Below are positions 8,338 to 27,137 of a stretch of 39,897 nt of DNA, in pieces (position 1 is the stretch's first letter; each line of letters begins with the position of its first letter). This stretch comes from Eubacteriales bacterium. Its GTDB lineage: Bacteria; Bacillota; Clostridia; Oscillospirales; Oscillospiraceae. The notes beneath the pieces were generated by a model. It saw only the letters and a program-made list of their open reading frames with translations. It was not told the DNA's origin and searched no databases. The translations under genes and the position numbers were made by a program. The DNA is taken from positions 1-39,897 of the forward strand of contig JAUNND010000014.1 of NCBI GenBank assembly GCA_030531595.1, written 5' to 3'.

Positions 8338-8363
8338 CGGCGGGAGACAAGCCCCCGCCCTAC
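8338..8363 (-). repeat. GTAGGGCGG palindrome, single arm, inverted
   Basis: CGGCGGGAGACAAGCCCCCG then CCCTAC is one arm of the repeat family, in the opposite orientation to the copy at 987. It lies in the 71-bp gap between the MalG-like permease and cutC. As an RNA hairpin it could separate expression of the transporter from cutC. Confidence 0.75.
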
Positions 8364-12515: not shown

Positions 12516-13592
12516 TTATTCTATGCCGCCCTCGCGTCTGACGATGGCATACATTTCCTCCCATTTGGCGTCCATGTCGTGCACCATCTTTATCTGCGTG
12601 CGGCAGCGGTCAAGGTTGTGTTCGGGGTAGTGGACGGAGAAGTAAACATCGCCGTTGAGGTAGTCTGTCAGAAAGCGCACGCCGCATTCAAGCGTCATCA
12701 GCTTTGCGCCCCACGGCAGACTCAGCTTTTCTTCCTCGGTCATACCGGCGCAGGAGCGTATAAAGCCGCGTGTAAAGACGGTGTAAAGACCGATATCCAT
12801 GGACACTTTGCTCAGATCCTTCTCGTCCTCGGCTGCGGTCGCCGCACCGAAGCGTATGGAGTCGCCGAAATCGAACGCGGCAAGCCCCGGCATGACGGTG
12901 TCAAGGTCTATAACGCACAGTGCCTTTCTCGTCTTTGCGTCAAGCATGACGTTGTTGAGCTTTGTATCGTTGTGCGTTACGCGCAGAGGAAGAACGCCGC
13001 TTTCAAGCTGTTTCTGCAAGGTCGCGGCTTCGTTTTCATAGCTCAGATAGTCCTCAATTTCCGCCTGTACGGAGGCAGCGCGTCCGACGGCGTCCTTTTC
13101 GATGGCCTCATGAAACCTTCTGTATCTGTCGGGGGTGTTGTGGAAGTTGGGAATGATCTCATGGAGCGTTTTGGCGGGGAAGTCGGCAAGCTGCTTCTGA
13201 AATGTGCCGAAGGCAACGGCGCTCTGATAGAAGTCCTCCGCATTTTCGGGGGCTTGCAGGCAGAGACTGTCCTCTATGAAATCGTATACGCGCCAGCTTC
13301 CGCCGTCATCATCCGTGAAATAAGACCGGCCGTCGGTTGTTTCAATGAGATTGAGATACTGTCTCGGGTCGGAGCACTGCTTTGAAAGATGGGCGGTAAC
13401 GGCGGAGATATTCTCCATAAGTCCCGCAACATCCGCAAAAACATTTGAGTTTATGCCCTGAAGTATATAACGCTTGCCGCTGTTACAGACAACGAGAAAG
13501 GTACGGTTGATATGTCCGAAGCCGTATGGCTCGCAGGAAATGATTTTGCCGTCGAGCTTAAAAAAAGACGCGGCATGAAGTGCAGTATTCAT
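12516..13592 (-). CDS. Sugar/aminoglycoside phosphotransferase-family kinase, NahK-like
   Basis: A 358-residue APH-fold kinase. The ATP-lid region YGFGHINRTFLVVCNSGKRY is near the N-terminus, the catalytic loop is VTHNDTKLNNVML (about 210-222) and the metal-binding segment is CVIDLDTVMPGLAAFDFGD. The HNDTKLNN loop and length match N-acetylhexosamine 1-kinases (NahK) of bifidobacterial type, which make GlcNAc/GalNAc 1-phosphate. The choline/homoserine kinase relatives are an alternative. I chose ATG 13592 because GGAGG lies 7 nt upstream; an in-frame ATG 33 bp earlier has no such site. It sits upstream of a sugar ABC operon, which fits intracellular phosphorylation of the imported amino sugar, but no lacto-N-biose phosphorylase, galT or galE is present. 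Confidence 0.78.
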   Translation of the reverse strand: MNTALHAASFFKLDGKIISCEPYGFGHINRTFLVVCNSGKRYILQGINSNVFADVAGLMENISAVTAHLSKQCSDPRQYLNLIETTDGRSYFTDDDGGSWRVYDFIEDSLCLQAPENAEDFYQSAVAFGTFQKQLADFPAKTLHEIIPNFHNTPDRYRRFHEAIEKDAVGRAASVQAEIEDYLSYENEAATLQKQLESGVLPLRVTHNDTKLNNVMLDAKTRKALCVIDLDTVMPGLAAFDFGDSIRFGAATAAEDEKDLSKVSMDIGLYTVFTRGFIRSCAGMTEEEKLSLPWGAKLMTLECGVRFLTDYLNGDVYFSVHYPEHNLDRCRTQIKMVHDMDAKWEEMYAIVRREGGIE

Positions 13593-13623
13593 CAATGGAC
13601 CTCCGCAATATGGAATATACTTC

Positions 13624-13652
13624 ATTATACAGCTTTTTTCGGGAAATGAACA
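13624..13652 (-). promoter_or_regulatory. Candidate promoter of the NahK-like gene
   Basis: On the minus strand TATAAT (13624-13629) lies 17 bp after TGTTCA (13647-13652). The -10 is perfect and the -35 weak. It lies between the small RNA terminator and the kinase start, so the kinase does not depend on read-through. Confidence 0.5.
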
Positions 13653-13663
13653 GCCCTTTGCAA

Positions 13664-13801
13664 TAAAAAAACGTCCGTTTGACGGACGTTATGTAAACAC
13701 CCTCGCGGGCGATGTATTTGGTCTGCCGCTTCGGATAGTCCATGGGTGGGCAGTAACCCTTACCTGAAAGCATTAACGACAGGCTCGAAAGCCATCATTA
13801 A
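13664..13801 (-). ncRNA. Unrecognised structured small RNA with its own terminator
   Basis: Read on the minus strand from about 13801, a chain of helices appears. A hairpin closes with TTAATGA/TCGTTAA and GGCT-UUCG-AGCC (13773-13801). CTGCC/GGCAG pairs across 13753-13723. AAATAC/GTGTTT pairs around a GC-rich apical loop. A perfect intrinsic terminator follows, AACGTCCGT-CAA-ACGGACGTT and a T-run (13664-13690). There is no credible reading frame. It does not match the riboswitch, SRP, RNase P or tmRNA cores I know; 6S RNA cannot be excluded. It may be a free RNA, since the kinase downstream has its own promoter. Confidence 0.6.
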
Positions 13802-13805
13802 TATA

Positions 13806-13835
13806 TATGACGGATGTTAAGAAGCTATGACGGAT
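13806..13835. promoter_or_regulatory. Direct repeat TATGACGGAT x2, operator candidate
   Basis: TATGACGGAT occurs at 13806-13815 and again at 13826-13835, exactly 20 bp (about two helical turns) apart. The pair sits between the small RNA (minus) and the PAS gene (plus). Phased direct repeats of this size are typical of dimeric response-regulator sites, for example LytTR type. Which of the two genes it controls is not clear. Confidence 0.5.
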
Positions 13836-13836
13836 A

Positions 13837-13865
13837 TTTCAAAATTTTATAAAACGTGGTATAAT
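13837..13865 (+). promoter_or_regulatory. Weak promoter of the PAS-domain gene
   Basis: A perfect -10 TATAAT (13860-13865) lies 17 bp after TTTCAA (13837-13842), a poor -35 directly beside the TATGACGGAT repeats. A poor -35 next to an operator fits an activator-dependent promoter, by inference. Confidence 0.4.
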
Positions 13866-13894
13866 GAAAAAACAAAAAACGGGAGGTACAGAAA

Positions 13895-14278
13895 ATGAAC
13901 ATCGATATTTTTCTCAGAAGCGTAATCGAACAGGACAGCGCACCGGTCGTACTGTGCGATCTCAGGCACACTGTCGTATATATGAACAGTGCCGCCGAGC
14001 AGAGGTATTCCTATGCGGGCGGCGCTGAACTGATCGGAAAAAGCCTCATGAACTGTCACAACGCGCATTCACGCGGCCTGATCGAAAAATGCATCGCGTG
14101 GTTCGAGGAAGATGTGACGCACAACAGCGTTTATGAGAGCTATAATCCCGATGAAAACAAGGATGTCTATATCGTTGCTCTGCGCGATGCCGACGGAAAG
14201 CTCATCGGCTATTACGAAAAGCATGAGTACAGAAATAAAGAGACGGACCGAACATACGGTTTTATGCCGGAAAAGTGA
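13895..14278 (+). CDS. Small stand-alone PAS domain protein
   Basis: A 127-residue protein that is almost wholly one PAS-like domain. APVVLCDLRHTVVYMNSAAE is the typical PAS opening, followed by YAGGAELIGKSLMNCHN. A short helix then precedes the final strands (VYIVALRDADGKLIGYYEKH). No kinase, cyclase or DNA-binding module is attached. PAS domains sense ligands or redox state, and the histidine and cysteine in the NCHNAHSRG loop could bind a metal or haem. GGGAGG lies 8 nt upstream of ATG. The gene is convergent with the motor cassette, with only two bases between their stops and no terminator seen. Partner unknown. Confidence 0.72.
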   Translation: MNIDIFLRSVIEQDSAPVVLCDLRHTVVYMNSAAEQRYSYAGGAELIGKSLMNCHNAHSRGLIEKCIAWFEEDVTHNSVYESYNPDENKDVYIVALRDADGKLIGYYEKHEYRNKETDRTYGFMPEK

Positions 14279-14280
14279 AA

Positions 14281-15282
14281 TTATTCTGTCTCGGGAATTT
14301 TTAATTTAAGATAGTCGTTGATGATATCCATGACCGTATCGTCTTTGAGCACCATGGAGATCTCGATACGGCGGTTAGCGGCACGGCCTTCGACCGTGTC
14401 GTTTGTCTGCACGGGACGTGTCGCGCCGTAGCCCGCGGCGCAAAAGACGTCGGAATAGGGCGCGAGAACGCCGTATCCGTTATTGAGCAGATAACTGAGG
14501 ACGGAATTTGCTCTGTCGGTGGCGAGTACGCGGTTTTCCTCGGCGCTGCCCGTGCTGTCGGTGTGACCGGAGATCACGATGCTCTCAACATAGCGGGAGT
14601 TTTCGTTGTCGGCGAGAAATTCGGAAAACACCGCGATAAGCTGATTGAGAAGCGGCTGGCTCTGCGGCTTTATCGCGCTTGAGCCGACATCGAAAAGTAC
14701 GCTGTCCGAAAGGATGATATTGCCGTTGTCGCCGATGCTGACCTTGGAGGCGTCGCCCATGACCTCGGCGATCCTGTCGCGTATCTGTTCGAGGATGGAG
14801 ACCCGAAGACCGGCAATTGTCTCCATCTGACTGCGCATGGCGGTCAGCTCATCGTTGGCGGCGGTGACATATTGCTTCTGCTGATCGATCAGCGCCTGCT
14901 GCTGCGCTATCTCGGCGGTCTGGCTGTCAAGACGGGACTGCTGAGCCTCTATCGCCGCCTTCTGTGTGGCTATTTCAAGCTCCTGCGCATCCAGCGTCAG
15001 CTTTGTGCTGTCAAGATCGGCTGTCACGACGGACAGCTCGTTTTCGGCTTCCTCAACATTGCGCAGCATGGCGGAAAGCTGAGTGCGGGAATTATCCAGC
15101 ATCTTCTTGGTATCTTCCAGATTGTTGCCGGTGATGAGATTTTCTATGTAGGCGATAAGCATCAGGAAGAACAGAATAAGTGCCACGGCGGACATCATAT
15201 CCGCGTAGGACGGCCAGAAGCCCTGCTCTCCGCCGGAAGAGGACACAAGGCCGTCTGTGCGGGAGGAAGAGGTTCTTCTCAT
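14281..15282 (-). CDS. OmpA/MotB-like stator subunit (ZorB-like)
   Basis: A 333-residue protein with one N-terminal membrane helix (about 30-50), a long coiled coil (about 55-165) and a C-terminal OmpA-like peptidoglycan-binding domain (about 195-315). Before the helix, FWPSYADMMS carries Asp28 at the position of the proton-binding aspartate of MotB and ZorB. The OmpA part has VISGHTDSTG and RAANRRIEISMV, the peptidoglycan contact motifs. It overlaps the upstream channel gene by 4 bp. There is no flagellar context and a Gram-positive has no outer membrane, so it should anchor an ion-driven motor to the wall. ZorB and uncharacterised motor partners are the nearest analogues. Confidence 0.88.
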   Translation of the reverse strand: MRRTSSSRTDGLVSSSGGEQGFWPSYADMMSAVALILFFLMLIAYIENLITGNNLEDTKKMLDNSRTQLSAMLRNVEEAENELSVVTADLDSTKLTLDAQELEIATQKAAIEAQQSRLDSQTAEIAQQQALIDQQKQYVTAANDELTAMRSQMETIAGLRVSILEQIRDRIAEVMGDASKVSIGDNGNIILSDSVLFDVGSSAIKPQSQPLLNQLIAVFSEFLADNENSRYVESIVISGHTDSTGSAEENRVLATDRANSVLSYLLNNGYGVLAPYSDVFCAAGYGATRPVQTNDTVEGRAANRRIEISMVLKDDTVMDIINDYLKLKIPETE

Positions 15283-16193
15283 TGCTTGATGCTCCTCTCA
15301 ATATTACGTGTTGCTTCACGCATACCGCTGACCACGTCGCGCAGAGATACGTCCATACGTTCAACGGTGCCGCGCAGATTGTAGTTGAATTCGTTGAAGT
15401 CGCGCACGCCGTCGTTGAAGCTGCCGACCGTCTGATTGAATGCGCCGAGGTAGCTTTTCGTCAGCTCAAGGGTCTTGTTCATGTTGAGGGTGGCGTTGCT
15501 GAGAGTGCTCTCGATGCTGTCAGAGGCGTTGTTGAGAGCGTCCATCATCTGGCGGACAAGCTCATATTCGTCCTTTGCCGCAACGGTCTTCAGTCCGGGA
15601 GCCACATCGTGGTCGAGCCACAGCTCCATGGAGACCTCAAGACGGCTCCTTGCCGTCTCGGGGTTCACAACGGCCCTGAGAACAGTGAGAAGAATGGAGC
15701 AGGCGACACCCACCAGAGAGGTATAGAACGCAACGCCCATGCCGGACAGCGCGGACATCAGTCCGCCGCCGACGCTGTCAAGAACGCTCAGCCATTCGGA
15801 GGTATCGGAAAAGCCGATCAGCTCCGTCAGAGACTGAACGGAAAGGCTCAGACCGAGGAAAGTGCCGAACAGACCGAGAGTTACGAACAGGGATACGGCG
15901 TTGTTCAGAAATCTCTCGCAGGCGAGCAGACCGCCGAGACGTCTGCCTATGGCCTCGGTGATGATCGCGGGTGTGTTGACCTCGCTGCCGTGGTGCTTGT
16001 ATGCCTCGGCGTACTCGGCCTTTACTCTGTGGAGAAATTCACTGCCGTTGCTGCCGTCGGAATTGACAAGGGCGGTCAGTCTTTTGTACCGTCCGCAGAC
16101 ATAGAACAGCAATATCAGAGCCAGGGCGAACAGCGCGACGATGATCGTGATAACGATGGTGCCCACTGCGGGCATATTACTCAGATTGCTCAA
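15279..16193 (-). CDS. MotA/TolQ/ExbB-like proton channel subunit (ZorA-like)
   Basis: A 304-residue protein with three membrane helices (about 10-33, 98-119 and 146-175), the ExbB/TolQ arrangement rather than the four of MotA. The conserved channel segment FVTLGLFGTFLGLSLSVQSL and the GGGLMSALSGMGVAFYTSLV stretch are clear. A cytoplasmic region of about 65 residues follows the first helix, and a 120-residue C-terminal helical tail follows the last. ZorA also has a cytoplasmic tail. With the overlapping OmpA/MotB-like gene it should form a 5:2 ion-driven rotary motor. It follows the RsiV-like lipoprotein gene by 24 bp. Confidence 0.87.
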   Translation of the reverse strand: MSNLSNMPAVGTIVITIIVALFALALILLFYVCGRYKRLTALVNSDGSNGSEFLHRVKAEYAEAYKHHGSEVNTPAIITEAIGRRLGGLLACERFLNNAVSLFVTLGLFGTFLGLSLSVQSLTELIGFSDTSEWLSVLDSVGGGLMSALSGMGVAFYTSLVGVACSILLTVLRAVVNPETARSRLEVSMELWLDHDVAPGLKTVAAKDEYELVRQMMDALNNASDSIESTLSNATLNMNKTLELTKSYLGAFNQTVGSFNDGVRDFNEFNYNLRGTVERMDVSLRDVVSGMREATRNIERSIKQ

Positions 16194-16217
16194 TTTTTTA
16201 TCCTCCGAATTATTTTT

Positions 16218-17753
16218 TTATTCAAATATGTCATTTACGTTTGTCCCGTTGACGAACTGGGTGTTTCCCTTGTTGACGAACAGGCGGCAGCATACCCCGG
16301 TGCTTGTTTTCATATCCACGCAGGAGACCGCGTCCGTGCGCCAGAAATAAAACTCTGTTTTCGCCGGTATTTTCACCGCGCCCTGATTGCCGCTGCCGGT
16401 GGCGGGATCGATGCTGACGGTGGATATCTCGTTTTTACTCGTTACAACGACGGTCGGATCGAGCAGAAAATATCCCTCGTCGCTTATCGGCATACCGTCG
16501 GCGCCGATGTGATAGGTCTTTACGCCGGGCTGCTCTCTTATGAGCGTGCACTTTGAGCCGAGCATGAAGCTTTCCGGATCGGTAAGTATAGGCTTGCCCT
16601 CGCAGTATCCGCTCCTTCCGGCACACTGAAGGCTCGTGTCATAAAGACCTCCGACAAAGGATGCGCCTGTACGGTCGATCCTGAACACGTTCACATAGCC
16701 GTAATCACTGAGGTTTTCGCCGTTGATCAGCAGATAATTCCTGCCGAGACCGGCATGGATGACGTAGCATTCGTAGCCTCTGAGACCGGTCTTGGTCGTG
16801 GTCTCATTGCCGTTGATGCTGATGGTCAGTACATCGGAATAGCCCAGCTTTTCGTTGTATGTGTCATATACGCTTATCCGGTCGCTGGCGCCGTTTAAGT
16901 CCAGATCGAAATTCAGACACTGACCGTCTACAAGAGGCACCGAATAGGCGCCGGGAACCTCCGCATAGTCCTGCACAAGTATCTCCGGATAGCTTTCATA
17001 GCGGAGAGATACGCTTAACACTCCCGCCGAAGCGTCCGCCAGCTCATAGGGGTTGAAATACAGGGTTATTCCCTGATAATCCACCGTCCATACGAACTGC
17101 GTGGGGTCTGCCATATATCGGTTGAGCGCGTTTATCAGATCATAAAACTCAACATCCGGGTATTTTGCCGGAAGCTCTGCTTCTATTATGTTGCGCAGTG
17201 CGGGAAGATCAGTCACGACATCGCGGATATCGAGCTGTCTGCCGGTAGCGGTGACGCGGTTGGAGCAGGAATAGGAGATATCCGTCATATCGCCGCCGGA
17301 GCTGACGGCGGATCTGTACAGGATGCTGACGGCGCGGCTGTCACAGCGCGGGAGAACAACGGAGGTAGAGCGCTGATAGCCGATAAAGTTTTCGCTGTCT
17401 GCAAGATAGCTCTGCTGTGCGGCGGCGCAGAGCTGTGAATACACGGTCTGGCCGTTCTGTATAAAGGAGCTGTTGATGCTGTTGAGTGCGTTGCTGAGAG
17501 CGGGATACTTCACACTGTCCTCGCTGTCGAGCCTGAGAACAGGATACTCAACGCGGCAGAGAAGCCTGTCACCCTCCATCTTCTCATAATACTGAATGTC
17601 CATAAAAAAGCGGAGAGCTTTCAGCGGCGCCGGCGTGGGCTCGGCTGACTGCGGGCGGGGCGTTTCCTCATTCAGCGGAACACTGTCGGTCTTCCCACAG
17701 CCGCAAAGCAGCAGAAATATCGTGAGAAATATAACGGAAAGTGTTTTTTTCAT
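16218..17753 (-). CDS. RsiV-like lipoprotein (DUF4163/DUF3298)
   Basis: A 511-residue exported lipoprotein. It starts MKKTLSVIFLTIFLLLCGCG; the cysteine in LLCGC is the likely lipid-attachment site, and a proline/acid-rich linker follows. Residues about 50-130 resemble DUF4163 (VEYPVLRLDSEDSVKYPALS) and about 200-265 DUF3298, with GITLYFNPYELADASAGVLS. These two domains bind lysozyme in RsiV and peptidoglycan-like ligands elsewhere. The remaining ~240 residues are beta-rich and include a calcium-loop-like DLDLNGASDRIS. Upstream there is an AGGAGG site. It is the first gene of the motor cassette, so it may sense the wall or transmit motor movement; this is inference. Confidence 0.82.
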   Translation of the reverse strand: MKKTLSVIFLTIFLLLCGCGKTDSVPLNEETPRPQSAEPTPAPLKALRFFMDIQYYEKMEGDRLLCRVEYPVLRLDSEDSVKYPALSNALNSINSSFIQNGQTVYSQLCAAAQQSYLADSENFIGYQRSTSVVLPRCDSRAVSILYRSAVSSGGDMTDISYSCSNRVTATGRQLDIRDVVTDLPALRNIIEAELPAKYPDVEFYDLINALNRYMADPTQFVWTVDYQGITLYFNPYELADASAGVLSVSLRYESYPEILVQDYAEVPGAYSVPLVDGQCLNFDLDLNGASDRISVYDTYNEKLGYSDVLTISINGNETTTKTGLRGYECYVIHAGLGRNYLLINGENLSDYGYVNVFRIDRTGASFVGGLYDTSLQCAGRSGYCEGKPILTDPESFMLGSKCTLIREQPGVKTYHIGADGMPISDEGYFLLDPTVVVTSKNEISTVSIDPATGSGNQGAVKIPAKTEFYFWRTDAVSCVDMKTSTGVCCRLFVNKGNTQFVNGTNVNDIFE

Positions 17754-17894
17754 TTACACCTCCTGCGACTCTACAAAATATGTAAACCATTTTATCAGAT
17801 TGTCTCCGAAAAATCCATAGTTTTTTTATGAACAAACGTATTTCCCCGGTTTCTCTCTGATGTCTGAAAATTAATCTTTCATTTTTGCTTTAAT

Positions 17895-17975
17895 GCGTAG
17901 GGCGGGGGCTCTGCTCCCGCCGAAAAGCCGGATTTTTCGTGACGTTACGGCGGGAGCAGAGCCCCCGCCCTACGC
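17895..17975. repeat. GTAGGGCGG element, two perfect 28-bp inverted arms
   Basis: Arms at 17895-17922 and 17948-17975 are perfect inverted repeats, starting GCGTAGGGCGGGGGCTCTGC, around a 25-bp spacer. Each arm folds on itself (GGCGGG/CCCGCC). It lies in the 505-bp gap between the divergent lipoprotein and Ig-like genes. Apart from this element, a candidate folded RNA (17984-18054) and a promoter, I see nothing else in the gap. Confidence 0.85.
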
Positions 17976-17983
17976 ATCGGAAC

Positions 17984-18054
17984 TTATATTGTACGCTAAG
18001 CTGGCACCATTGTCTCAAAGAGAGCCGTCGGCAAGGTAGCAAAACTGCATATAA
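17984..18054 (+). other. Candidate folded leader segment, weakly c-di-GMP-I-like
   Basis: TTATAT (17984-17989) pairs with ATATAA (18049-18054). Within it GCTGGC (18000-18005) pairs with GTCGGC (18027-18032), including G-U pairs, around a TCTC-AAA-GAGA hairpin. ACGCTAAG before and GGTAGC after the helix recall the second half of GEMM/c-di-GMP-I riboswitches. The first half (GCAAACC stem with GNRA loop) is absent, being replaced by the repeat at 17895. It may be a decayed riboswitch or chance. Confidence 0.25.
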
Positions 18055-18185
18055 AAAGACGTTCTTATAACATGAAAAAGTTCCCATTTATATTTTCATT
18101 TTTTCGGGGGAACATTTTAAACCGGCCTCCGTCAAATCAGACACAGTCGGAAAACAGCGGAAAGCACAATTTTTGACGAAAGTTG

Positions 18186-18214
18186 TTGCCGATGCCGGAT
18201 GATTGTGATATGAT
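18186..18214 (+). promoter_or_regulatory. Promoter of the Ig-like surface protein gene
   Basis: TTGCCG (18186-18191) and TATGAT (18209-18214) are 17 bp apart, 45 bp before the start codon. Confidence 0.55.
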
Positions 18215-18258
18215 ATATTTTGCAGTATTGTCAAATACCTCAACAGGAGGACAGAATA

Positions 18259-20037
18259 ATGAAAAGCCTGACAAAAATTCTTACGATAGTGATGCTCATG
18301 TGCGCATTGACGGTGCTCGTCAGCGCCAACGCATGGGCAGAAGGTATGTATCCGAGCATTATCGGTACCGGCAGCGTAGTGGTTTCCACGACGGTTCCGA
18401 CGTATAATAGCGCAGTCCCCACAAGCTCTGCATGGACAGTGGAGGAACACCACGCCATAAGCATCGCTTCATCAAATCTTGCGTCGGCAACCATAAATAT
18501 TACCGAAAACCTTAACGCCGCGTACTCGGTTCAATGCGTTTATACATTTGACGGGGGGCATACAGAAACCGTCAGCGGTTCTATCAGTCAGACCGCAGCC
18601 AGCGTTTCGATTACGTCGCCGGACATTGGCCTTTCCGTTAGTGAAACGTATCAGCTTACCGCTGCCACAAATACCGGTAAACCGATAGAATGGAGCAGCA
18701 ATAATCCCGACGCCGTATCTGTTTCAAACACCGGCCTTGTTACCGGTAAAAGTGAAGGCTCTGCTGTCATTACCGCATCTTCCTGCGGTGGCTCCGATTC
18801 ACGAACCATCTATGTCACGGTTCCGACCCCCATTTCCGTGACCGGCGTAAACCTCAACTACTATGATCTGGAGCTTCCCGTAAATCACTGGGCTCAGCTC
18901 ACCGCGACCGTTGTTCCCTCCAATGCAGATAATACGGCGGTAACATGGGATTCCAGTGATCCCAGCAAGGTTTCTGTCGATGCAAACGGCGTTATCAGAC
19001 GTATTGCCGACGGCGAGGTTCAGATCACCGTAACGACCGCTGACGGAGGCAAAACAGCTGTTTGCAGCGTATCCTCCCCCGAGCCGACACCTGACCTGAC
19101 GCTCAGTGAAAATTCCATTGACCTCACCAACGCCGCCAGACAGCTCAAGGTGTACTGCAACGACAGTGATGTTACCGATGCCTGTGAGTGGGCAAGCTAC
19201 AATCCTTCCGTTGCCACTGTTTCCAAGGGCATTGTAACTCCCGTTGCCAACGGCTCCACAACGATATCCGCCAGATACAACGTGGGCAGCACAGATGAAA
19301 CTCTCTACTGTTCCGTCAGCGTGAGCAAAACCACCGCTCCCCTCACACTCAGCTCCTATAATCTTACTCTCTCGTTCGGCGGCGGAAATGCCTTCCTGCA
19401 GCCCTATTATAACGGTGCACCCATTCCCGCAAGCAACTGCACATGGGAGACCTCCGATCCCAACAGAACCGTTATTTCCGTAAATCAGGGAACGATCACG
19501 CCGATCAGAGCCGGAACGGCGTCCGTCAGAGCCATATACCGCTTTAACGGCACTAACGTATATTCCGATTGGTGTACCGTGACCGTCGGCGGTACGACCT
19601 TCTTCACCATTACCGCCGTCAGCAACAACGCCACCTTCGACGGAGTCAACCCCCTGTACTTCGTGACATCCGCAGCCTACGATAAGAACGCATACCCCTC
19701 CGTGACGATCGTCGGCGCAAACAACGAATATTCCCGCAACCTCGTTTACGGCAGCGATTTCAGAGTCGACTGCAGCCCCGACGGGCATATGATGATCACC
19801 GTTAACCCCGTCACTCTGCACAATCTGCCGCAGTCCAACTTCCACAACATCGCCGTTTCCTACGGCGGACAGATCGCCTACGCCCGTTTCTGGCGTGCCG
19901 GCACGAGCTACAATGTCTACGGCGTGAGGACCGGCGACGATAACAACATCGCTCTCTGGAGCAGCCTTTGCCTGATAAGCTTTGCGGGAGCTGCCGCGAT
20001 CGTTATTACAAAACGCAAGGACATTTTTGCAAAATAA
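18259..20037 (+). CDS. Secreted surface protein with bacterial Ig-like (Big2) domains
   Basis: A 592-residue exported protein. The signal peptide MKSLTKILTIVMLMCALTVL ends near AWA. ATG 18259 follows AGGAGG by 8 nt; an in-frame ATG 39 bp earlier lacks a site. Three or four Big2 repeats follow, with the pattern VTWDSSDPSKVSVDANGVI and EWSSNNPDAVSVSNTGLVTG, then less regular repeats (about 280-450) and a beta-rich C-terminal domain. The end is a wall-sorting-like tail: TGDDNN, a hydrophobic helix (ALWSSLCLISFAGAAAIVIT) and a KRKDIFAK tail. The usual LPxTG is replaced by YGVRTG. It is probably an adhesin-like surface protein. It stands alone and is flanked by repeats on both sides. Confidence 0.85.
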   Translation: MKSLTKILTIVMLMCALTVLVSANAWAEGMYPSIIGTGSVVVSTTVPTYNSAVPTSSAWTVEEHHAISIASSNLASATINITENLNAAYSVQCVYTFDGGHTETVSGSISQTAASVSITSPDIGLSVSETYQLTAATNTGKPIEWSSNNPDAVSVSNTGLVTGKSEGSAVITASSCGGSDSRTIYVTVPTPISVTGVNLNYYDLELPVNHWAQLTATVVPSNADNTAVTWDSSDPSKVSVDANGVIRRIADGEVQITVTTADGGKTAVCSVSSPEPTPDLTLSENSIDLTNAARQLKVYCNDSDVTDACEWASYNPSVATVSKGIVTPVANGSTTISARYNVGSTDETLYCSVSVSKTTAPLTLSSYNLTLSFGGGNAFLQPYYNGAPIPASNCTWETSDPNRTVISVNQGTITPIRAGTASVRAIYRFNGTNVYSDWCTVTVGGTTFFTITAVSNNATFDGVNPLYFVTSAAYDKNAYPSVTIVGANNEYSRNLVYGSDFRVDCSPDGHMMITVNPVTLHNLPQSNFHNIAVSYGGQIAYARFWRAGTSYNVYGVRTGDDNNIALWSSLCLISFAGAAAIVITKRKDIFAK

Positions 20038-26948: not shown

Positions 26949-27137
26949 AAAACCGCCACTCGGCAAAGCAATGTCATTAAGTTAAGAAAAACGTGTCTGT
27001 AGGGCGGGGGCTCTGCTCCCGCCGAAACATCTGATACGCTGCTTGTCTGCGGAGGGAGACAGCCAGCGCCCTACGGTGAAAAATCATTAACTAAATGACA
27101 TTGCTCGGCAAAGTGAAGGTTTTCTAAACATTTTTTT
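26949..27137 (+). terminator. Terminator of the CARF nuclease gene, split by an inserted element
   Basis: Left half AAAACC-GC-CACT (26949-26960) and right half AGTG-AA-GGTTTT (27112-27123), then a T-run (27131-27137). Without the element between them, they would form one hairpin with loop CGGCAA. The element now separates the halves by about 140 bp. Confidence 0.75.
26969..27103. mobile_element. Small non-autonomous element with TIRs and target duplication
   Basis: The ends CAATGTCATTAAGTTAA (26969-26985) and TTAACTAAATGACATTG (27087-27103) are inverted repeats matching at 16 of 17 bases. CTCGGCAAAG flanks both sides perfectly (26959-26968 and 27104-27113). Depending on where the boundary is drawn, the target duplication is 8 to 10 bp. 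The core holds one GTAGGGCGG arm (26999-27024) and a degenerate inverted partner (27050-27075). It has no coding capacity. Confidence 0.85.

What the first reader, a model, noticed from the sequence alone, without database searches (positions are those of the whole stretch)
14281..17753. Lipoprotein, ExbB-like channel and MotB/OmpA-like stator: a non-flagellar motor cassette
The channel and stator genes overlap by 4 bp and follow a DUF4163/DUF3298 lipoprotein. The stator keeps the membrane aspartate and peptidoglycan motifs, so the motor should run. It resembles ZorA/ZorB of the Zorya anti-phage system, but no ZorC, ZorD or ZorE is present. The lipoprotein, from a lysozyme- or wall-sensing family, could be the effector or sensor. 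I know of no described system of this composition.
Basis: partly seen in the sequence, partly recalled or inferred. Interest (0 to 1): 0.75.

Follow-up and report, generated by a model that had tools for sequence, protein, structure and literature searches.

The report
Stand-alone Zorya-like membrane motor pair
This bacterium carries a two-gene, wall-anchored, probably ion-driven membrane motor related to the motor of the Zorya phage-defence system but without Zorya's DNA-attacking parts; the lipoprotein gene beside it looks like a local neighbour rather than a third motor part.

Summary
Channel (15279-16193) and OmpA-domain stator (14281-15282), overlapping by 4 bp, are a conserved pair: together in 50 of 52 loci examined, diverging together (r=0.91, 48 loci), with invariant pore Asp, Thr residues and peptidoglycan-site Arg.

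The lipoprotein is not part of the unit: no relative at 13 of 13 homologous loci; 17 other same-family genomes of 150 searched hold a distant relative, none seen at a motor.

It is not plain Zorya either: no ZorC in 52 loci, the one ZorD-like hit is a CshA-like RNA helicase, and the channel falls in a Clostridial clade (80/88) apart from Zorya I ZorA and from MotA.

New lead: a long-tailed sister branch carries a TPR gene beside the motor (21 of 21 long tails, 0 of 28 short; genomes 6 of 6 against 0 of 23). In one family the TPR gene is missing at the same chromosomal site where the tail is shorter. The window motor is a short, partnerless form. Function unknown; best guess wall-to-cytoplasm signalling.

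The parts
14281..15282 (-). B subunit (stator): short N-end, one membrane helix with D28, variable coil-like linker, OmpA-type peptidoglycan-binding domain (residues 196-304), conserved C-terminal end
   Evidence: Pfam OmpA 64 bits; PADLOC ZorB1 125.7 bits; D28 and R257 invariant in 48 of 48 loci; alignment A2
15279..16193 (-). A subunit (channel): three hydrophobic stretches (judged by eye) and a cytoplasmic C-terminal tail of about 125 residues; T111 and T158 presumably line the pore
   Evidence: PADLOC ZorA1 35.7 bits; nearest solved chain ZorA of 8vvn; alignment A1; heptad-like periodicity of residues 205-300
15282..15665 (-). DNA for the cytoplasmic tail of the channel (residues 177-304), with a motif around FNxGVxxFxExxYNLRGxxERxD conserved in the same-family loci
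   Evidence: alignment A1; tail comparison with long-tailed relatives
16218..17753 (-). Lipoprotein with marginal DUF3298; possibly co-transcribed here (24-bp gap) but a local neighbour, not a conserved motor part
   Evidence: DUF3298 24.9 bits; no relative at 13 of 13 homologous loci; relatives elsewhere

Best explanation
A chromosomal, stand-alone, wall-anchored 5:2 ion motor of the ZorA/ZorB kind. Five channel subunits would surround two stator helices; ions would pass D28 and the Thr ring and turn the pentamer around the stator, which is held by peptidoglycan (all inferred from homology to solved ZorAB). The channel's cytoplasmic tails would form a short rod that carries motion or strain into the cytoplasm (inferred; a heptad-like pattern supports it). 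In a long-tailed sister branch the channel is up to about 200 residues longer and goes with a TPR protein encoded next to it (gene association shown; binding inferred). The window form has neither. I think it most likely senses or adjusts the state of wall and envelope rather than attacking phage DNA (a guess). The upstream lipoprotein is an operon neighbour of this genome only.
For: Pair adjacency in 50 of 52 loci; matching A/B divergence, r=0.906, 0 of 2000 permutations as high (shared ancestry alone would also give this); invariant motor residues; ZorA/ZorB the nearest PADLOC profiles and ZorA the nearest solved channel; Clostridial clade apart from Zorya I ZorA and MotA; no ZorC in 52 loci with working leave-one-out controls and references confirmed as Zorya I; no match in plasmid or phage collections, one short 30% match in viral contigs; fixed housekeeping neighbourhood in family f32; low dN/dS; tail length and TPR gene go together, 21 of 21 against 0 of 28 loci, 6 of 6 against 0 of 23 genomes.
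Against: No structure could be predicted, so the 5:2 assembly and the rod are inferred. Patchy presence in its own family (12 of 200 genomes, the window's own included; 6 of 106 genera) with differing neighbours also fits an accessory gene such as defence. Nothing shows a wall-related function. The Clostridial clade has moderate support (80/88), and the free tree search missed better-scoring trees. The tail tip of short f32 channels is kept although the TPR gene is gone, so the tip is not simply a TPR dock.
Confidence: 0.6

Rival explanations
1. An anti-phage system: a reduced Zorya relative in which the motor alone, or with an effector encoded elsewhere, detects wall or membrane disturbance by phage and acts.
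For: Nearest profiles and nearest solved channel are ZorA/ZorB; patchy presence in its own family with varying neighbours.
Against: No ZorC and no true ZorD in 52 loci; no match in phage or plasmid collections; some loci lie among housekeeping genes: topoisomerase (L022), ribosomal S15 (L076), primase and sigma-70 (L074), NAD ligase (L062), and a fixed site in family f32. In published work deletion of each component abolished protection by Zorya I against phages Alma and Mav and by Zorya II against T7 (PMC11890865, section 6 part 1 read). Effectors of types II and III were not profiled here.
Confidence: 0.2
2. One reading: the lipoprotein is the motor's sensor or effector.
For: 24-bp gap, same strand, plausible shared transcript in the window.
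Against: No relative at 13 of 13 homologous loci and no lipoprotein cluster among the listed recurring neighbours of 52 loci. Besides the window, 17 of the 150 genomes have a relative; 2 of the 17 (G004, G129) also have the motor, on other contigs, and the other 15 had no motor match.
Confidence: 0.06
3. A stator of an unrecognised surface machine (gliding, secretion or pilus-like) whose other parts lie elsewhere in the genome.
For: 5:2 motors drive such machines in other bacteria (PMC12204202, passages and section 8 read); no partner gene recurs beside the short form across families.
Against: The feature that varies with a partner gene is the cytoplasmic tail, and the TPR protein shows no signal peptide or membrane stretch by eye, pointing inward. 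The genome was not searched for such machines.
Confidence: 0.14

Closest known systems
ZorA/ZorB of Zorya type I (solved entry 8vvn)
   Same: Channel with a cytoplasmic tail; stator with membrane Asp and OmpA-type wall-binding domain; adjacent genes in the order A then B
   Different: Channel 304 aa against ORFs of 527-680 aa in seven Zorya I loci; ZorA models far under cut-off (30.4 of 100, 23.2 of 500); no ZorC/ZorD; separate clade
MotA/MotB flagellar stator
   Same: Pore Asp motif (SYADxM, recalled) and OmpA-type domain in the B subunit
   Different: No flagellin and no other MotA-type protein found in the genome; channel outside the MotA clade (100/100)
TolQ/TolR and ExbB/ExbD
   Same: TolQ/ExbB-type channel with GLxGTxxGL stretch (motif recalled)
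   Different: B subunit has an OmpA domain and no ExbD/TolR domain hit at E<=1e-3
TolQR-like motor with TPR and vWA genes in PVC bacteria (PMC12204202, section 8 read)
   Same: A TPR gene next to a 5:2 motor, like the long-tailed Clostridial sister branch
   Different: TolR-type B subunits and vWA transducers, other phyla; the window form has no TPR gene

Membership tests
Zorya anti-phage system | ZorA/ZorB-type motor pair | tested here: inconclusive
   PADLOC ZorB1 125.7 and ZorA1 35.7 bits, but NCBIfam ZorA 30.4 and 23.2 bits against cut-offs of 100 and 500
Zorya anti-phage system | ZorC and ZorD (type I) beside the motor | tested here: not met
   ZorC profile: 0 hits in the window and 51 other loci; ZorD profile: one hit, a CshA-like RNA helicase. 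Leave-one-out controls recovered 7 of 7 ZorC (one weakly, 8e-7) and 6 of 6 ZorD; PADLOC confirms 6 of 6 ZorC and 3 of 3 ZorD references scanned. One ZorC also found nothing in the whole own genome, with no positive control in that call
Zorya anti-phage system | ZorE (type II) or type III effectors beside the motor | not tested
   No such profile was built for the 52 loci. In the window the pair, the lipoprotein and three neighbouring ORFs gave no PADLOC hit besides ZorA/ZorB and one 15.5-bit LmuB match to the stator; other window genes were not scanned
Zorya anti-phage system | Long ZorA tail | tested here: not met
   Tail about 125 residues; PMC11890865 gives residues 236-696 for the type I and 100-378 for the type II tail
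Zorya anti-phage system | Protection against phage | not testable with these tools
   needs a plaque assay
5:2 ion-driven rotary motors | Membrane Asp in B and Thr ring in A | tested here: met
   D28, T111, T158 invariant in 48 of 48 loci; that these Thr form the ring is inferred by analogy
5:2 ion-driven rotary motors | Pentamer around dimer, ion flow | not testable with these tools
Flagellar stator MotAB | Flagellum in the genome and MotA-type channel | tested here: not met
   no flagellin (control rang in 4 of 14 genomes); one MotA_ExbB protein only; outside the MotA clade
TolQR/ExbBD | ExbD/TolR-type B subunit | tested here: not met
   only OmpA found by Pfam at E<=1e-3

The most novel reading that the evidence does not exclude
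A chromosomal motor class of Clostridia, distinct from Zorya, MotAB and Tol/Ton: a wall-anchored rotor whose cytoplasmic tail length is matched to a dedicated TPR partner. In at least one family a short form arose from the long form with loss of the TPR gene; short partnerless forms such as the window's use the rod alone or another cytoplasmic target, giving single-membrane bacteria a mechanical link from wall to cytoplasm.
Probability: 0.4. Interest if true: 0.78.

Novelty: new variant of a known kind. Interest (0 to 1): 0.5.

Why it matters
5:2 motors are best studied in two-membraned bacteria and flagella, and Zorya showed that one can act on the cytoplasm. A Zorya-like motor without ZorC/ZorD, under purifying selection on Clostridial chromosomes (49 of 391 class genomes at 98 bits or more, the window's own included), would show what such a motor does outside defence and where Zorya's core may have come from. 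The tail-TPR pairing gives a concrete partner to test.

Tried and rejected
Lipoprotein as third part: rejected. Plain Zorya I: rejected. Flagellar stator: rejected. Mobile origin: no match in plasmids or phages (long form in plasmids only); one short 30% match in viral contigs, whose ORFs were listed and not followed. RNA families in 13000-19000: none. Solved relatives of the lipoprotein: none at E<=0.1. The second solved-chain hit of the channel profile is a protein named Syn-F4-Link (22.8 bits), taken as a coil match. The upstream gene of L014 (Cthe_2159 carbohydrate-binding family; same layout in L015/L018) was considered as an equivalent of the window lipoprotein, but it is another family and seen only in near-identical loci.

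Literature: searches listed no paper on this pair or on a Clostridial motor-TPR set; several listings were cut to the best 8-20 papers and the library is partial, so this is weak. The Zorya structure paper in Nature was not held and is only recalled.

Rows dropped: L015 and L018 from counts over 52 loci (L018 kept in alignments A1 and A2 and in the listings); L015 and L018 from the tree; L153 (wrong frame taken) and L094 (ends at the contig end) from the tree; L154 moved from MotA to 'other'; L089, L090, L075 and L094 from the A/B comparison, the last two because no stator was found there. L027, L137 and L138 were fetched and used no further. Of 53 non-window class genomes with a match, 40 were fetched and two weak ones; 11 were not fetched as stretches.
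Full report
What is there. The three minus-strand genes stand at the stated coordinates: stator 14281-15282, channel 15279-16193, lipoprotein 16218-17753. Channel and stator overlap by 4 bp; the lipoprotein ends 24 bp before the channel's TTG start, which has a fair ribosome site. Pfam gives OmpA (64 bits) for the stator, a sub-threshold MotA_ExbB for the channel as a lone protein, and a marginal DUF3298 for the lipoprotein; DUF4163 did not appear. PADLOC gives only ZorA models for the channel, and ZorB models plus one 15.5-bit LmuB match for the stator. NCBIfam's two ZorA models are far from their cut-offs (30.4 of 100 and 23.2 of 500 bits).

The pair is real and conserved. In the same-family sample 12 of 200 genomes, the window's own included, carry the channel; the 11 others are 54-62% identical, and G174 has one further marginal match. 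In the order sample 3 of 295 had a match: the window, one same-family genome and one weak match. In the class sample it was 54 of 391, of which 49 (window included) reach 98 bits or more and 5 are weak. In the phylum sample it was 8 of 398: the window, one at 226 bits (G1110), two at 56-60 bits and four under 28 bits, of which two (G882, G908) are Zorya loci. I examined 52 loci around channels (window, L014, 10 other same-family loci, and 40 class loci including the divergent L089 and L090): 50 have an OmpA-type gene directly after the channel. The exceptions are L094, which ends at the contig end, and L075, where the channel is followed directly by the TPR gene. Distances of A and B agree (r=0.906, 48 loci, 0 of 2000 permutations as high); D28 and R257 of B and T111 and T158 of A never vary in those 48; the dN and dS of four close pairs give ratios of about 0.04-0.19.

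The lipoprotein is not a part. BLAST of the window proteins against ORFs of the same-family homologous stretches found stator and channel in all 13 and the lipoprotein in none (L015 and L018 are one genome, and some stretches are only 5.6-9 kb long because the contigs are short). Among neighbour clusters of 52 loci (those shared by at least 3 loci, list cut at 40) none is a lipoprotein of this family; the recurring ones are the pair, shadows on other frames, the TPR gene, and genes shared by subsets of up to 11 loci, as a rule related genomes. Of 150 same-family genomes 18 have some relative of the lipoprotein, the window included; the others are at 21-34% identity, and the window's genome has a second weak one on another contig. 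Two of those 17 (G004, G129) also have the motor, on other contigs. Upstream ORFs elsewhere look unrelated, and 23 of 50 share the channel's strand, the window counted (the ORF picks are greedy and include some that may not be genes).

It is not plain Zorya. I took seven ZorA-B-C loci from the phylum and class samples as references. PADLOC names ZorC in 6 of 6 of their ZorC proteins scanned (one only 27 bits) and ZorD in 3 of 3 scanned. Profiles of their ZorC (7) and ZorD (6) were run over all ORFs of the 52 loci and L018: ZorC hit nothing; ZorD hit one 438-residue protein in L083, an RNA helicase nearest to CshA, though under that model's cut-off. Leave-one-out controls found 7 of 7 ZorC and 6 of 6 ZorD. 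Type II and III effectors were not profiled. A channel tree of 76 rows places MotA (14 rows, 100/100), Zorya I ZorA (7 rows, 89/87) and a Clostridial clade (49 rows, 80/88) apart; the window family is 12 rows with 100/100. The nearest solved chain to the window family's profile is a ZorA (8vvn, E=3.9e-5), aligned over the pore region and the start of the tail. The own genome shows one MotA_ExbB protein and no flagellin.

A partner in the sister branch. Measured from the start of the family model, 21 channels are 479-508 residues long and 28 are 276-363 (L089, L090, the cut L094 and the duplicate L018 set aside). All 21 long ones have a gene of 299-334 residues, with a weak TPR match in Pfam in the two examples scanned, just after the stator, or in L075 after the channel; none of the 28 short ones has it. 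In five of the 28 (L020, L026, L097, L098, L099) less than 2.2 kb is held downstream of the channel, so absence there is weaker. A profile of 15 of these TPR proteins found full-length matches in 6 of 6 long-tailed genomes and in 0 of 23 short-tailed ones; 7 of the 23 showed only short generic TPR matches of under 33 bits. The long-tailed channels are one clade (100/99). In family f32 both forms sit at the same place, followed by the same M20-type peptidase, dUTPase and U32 peptidase genes (Pfam for L068; relatives by BLAST). The TPR gene is present in 4 of 4 long loci and absent from 5 of 5 short loci there. The three short f32 channels aligned (L077, L078, L091) lack a middle stretch of the tail but keep the same last residues. 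Trees that join the f32 short forms to the f32 long forms, or to all long forms, scored 13.6 and 14.7 log units better than the free tree and are not rejected (p-AU 0.76 and 0.72). So one short form probably arose by shortening of a long one with loss of the TPR gene. Since the tip is kept without the TPR gene, the missing middle is the better candidate for the contact; this is inference.

Mechanism. Shown: paired genes, invariant motor residues, a wall-binding-type domain, a tail with heptad-like hydrophobic periodicity (relative power 10-11 at periods 3.5-3.6, 1.3 or less at the other nine periods tried), and the tail-TPR association. Inferred from solved ZorAB (PMC11890865, outline and section 6 part 1 read, a term search without passages): 5:2 assembly, rotation, Asp-driven ion passage, rod-like tail. 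Guessed: the output. No known effector was seen next to the short form. Phage defence is kept as a rival because the pair is patchy in its own family (6 of 106 genera). Against it stand the lack of ZorC/ZorD, no plasmid or phage match, housekeeping neighbours in several loci and a stable site in f32. I put wall or envelope signalling first at about 0.35-0.4 on its own, and the motor-pair reading overall at 0.6.

Known or new. The literature searches listed nothing on this Clostridial pair; the library is partial. PMC12505986 (outline and passages read) left ZorAB out of its phylogeny and groups non-flagellar motors broadly. PMC12204202 (passages and section 8 read) describes a TPR gene beside TolQR-like motors with vWA proteins in other phyla, so motor-TPR neighbourhoods have a precedent. 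I file this as a new variant of the known 5:2 motor kind.

Noticed in passing
L089:6084-12872 (G731): A divergent ZorA/ZorB-like pair is followed by a 1133-residue protein with no Pfam, PADLOC or NCBIfam hit and preceded by a 286-residue protein without Pfam hit; possibly an undescribed motor-effector set.
   Followed up: partly
L075:7153-9717 (G805): Channel is followed directly by the TPR gene; no stator gene was found in the stretch, a possible natural loss of the B subunit in a genome that keeps A and TPR.
   Followed up: no
window 17901-17969, also 27003-27023 and 8339-8359: A GC-rich inverted repeat (GGCGGGGGCTCTGCTCCCGCC) upstream of the lipoprotein gene recurs exactly once more and once with 3 mismatches in the window; 0 expected in shuffles. 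In 164 loci only the own-genome locus L100 has the exact 22-base form.
   Followed up: partly
window 13895-14278: A small PAS-domain protein gene converges on the stator gene with a 2-bp gap.
   Followed up: no
L134 and L136: Another ZorA-like channel type with a large B-like protein (737 and 524 residues by ORF), in L136 beside genes that look by eye like polysaccharide assembly; outside the window clade in the tree.
   Followed up: no
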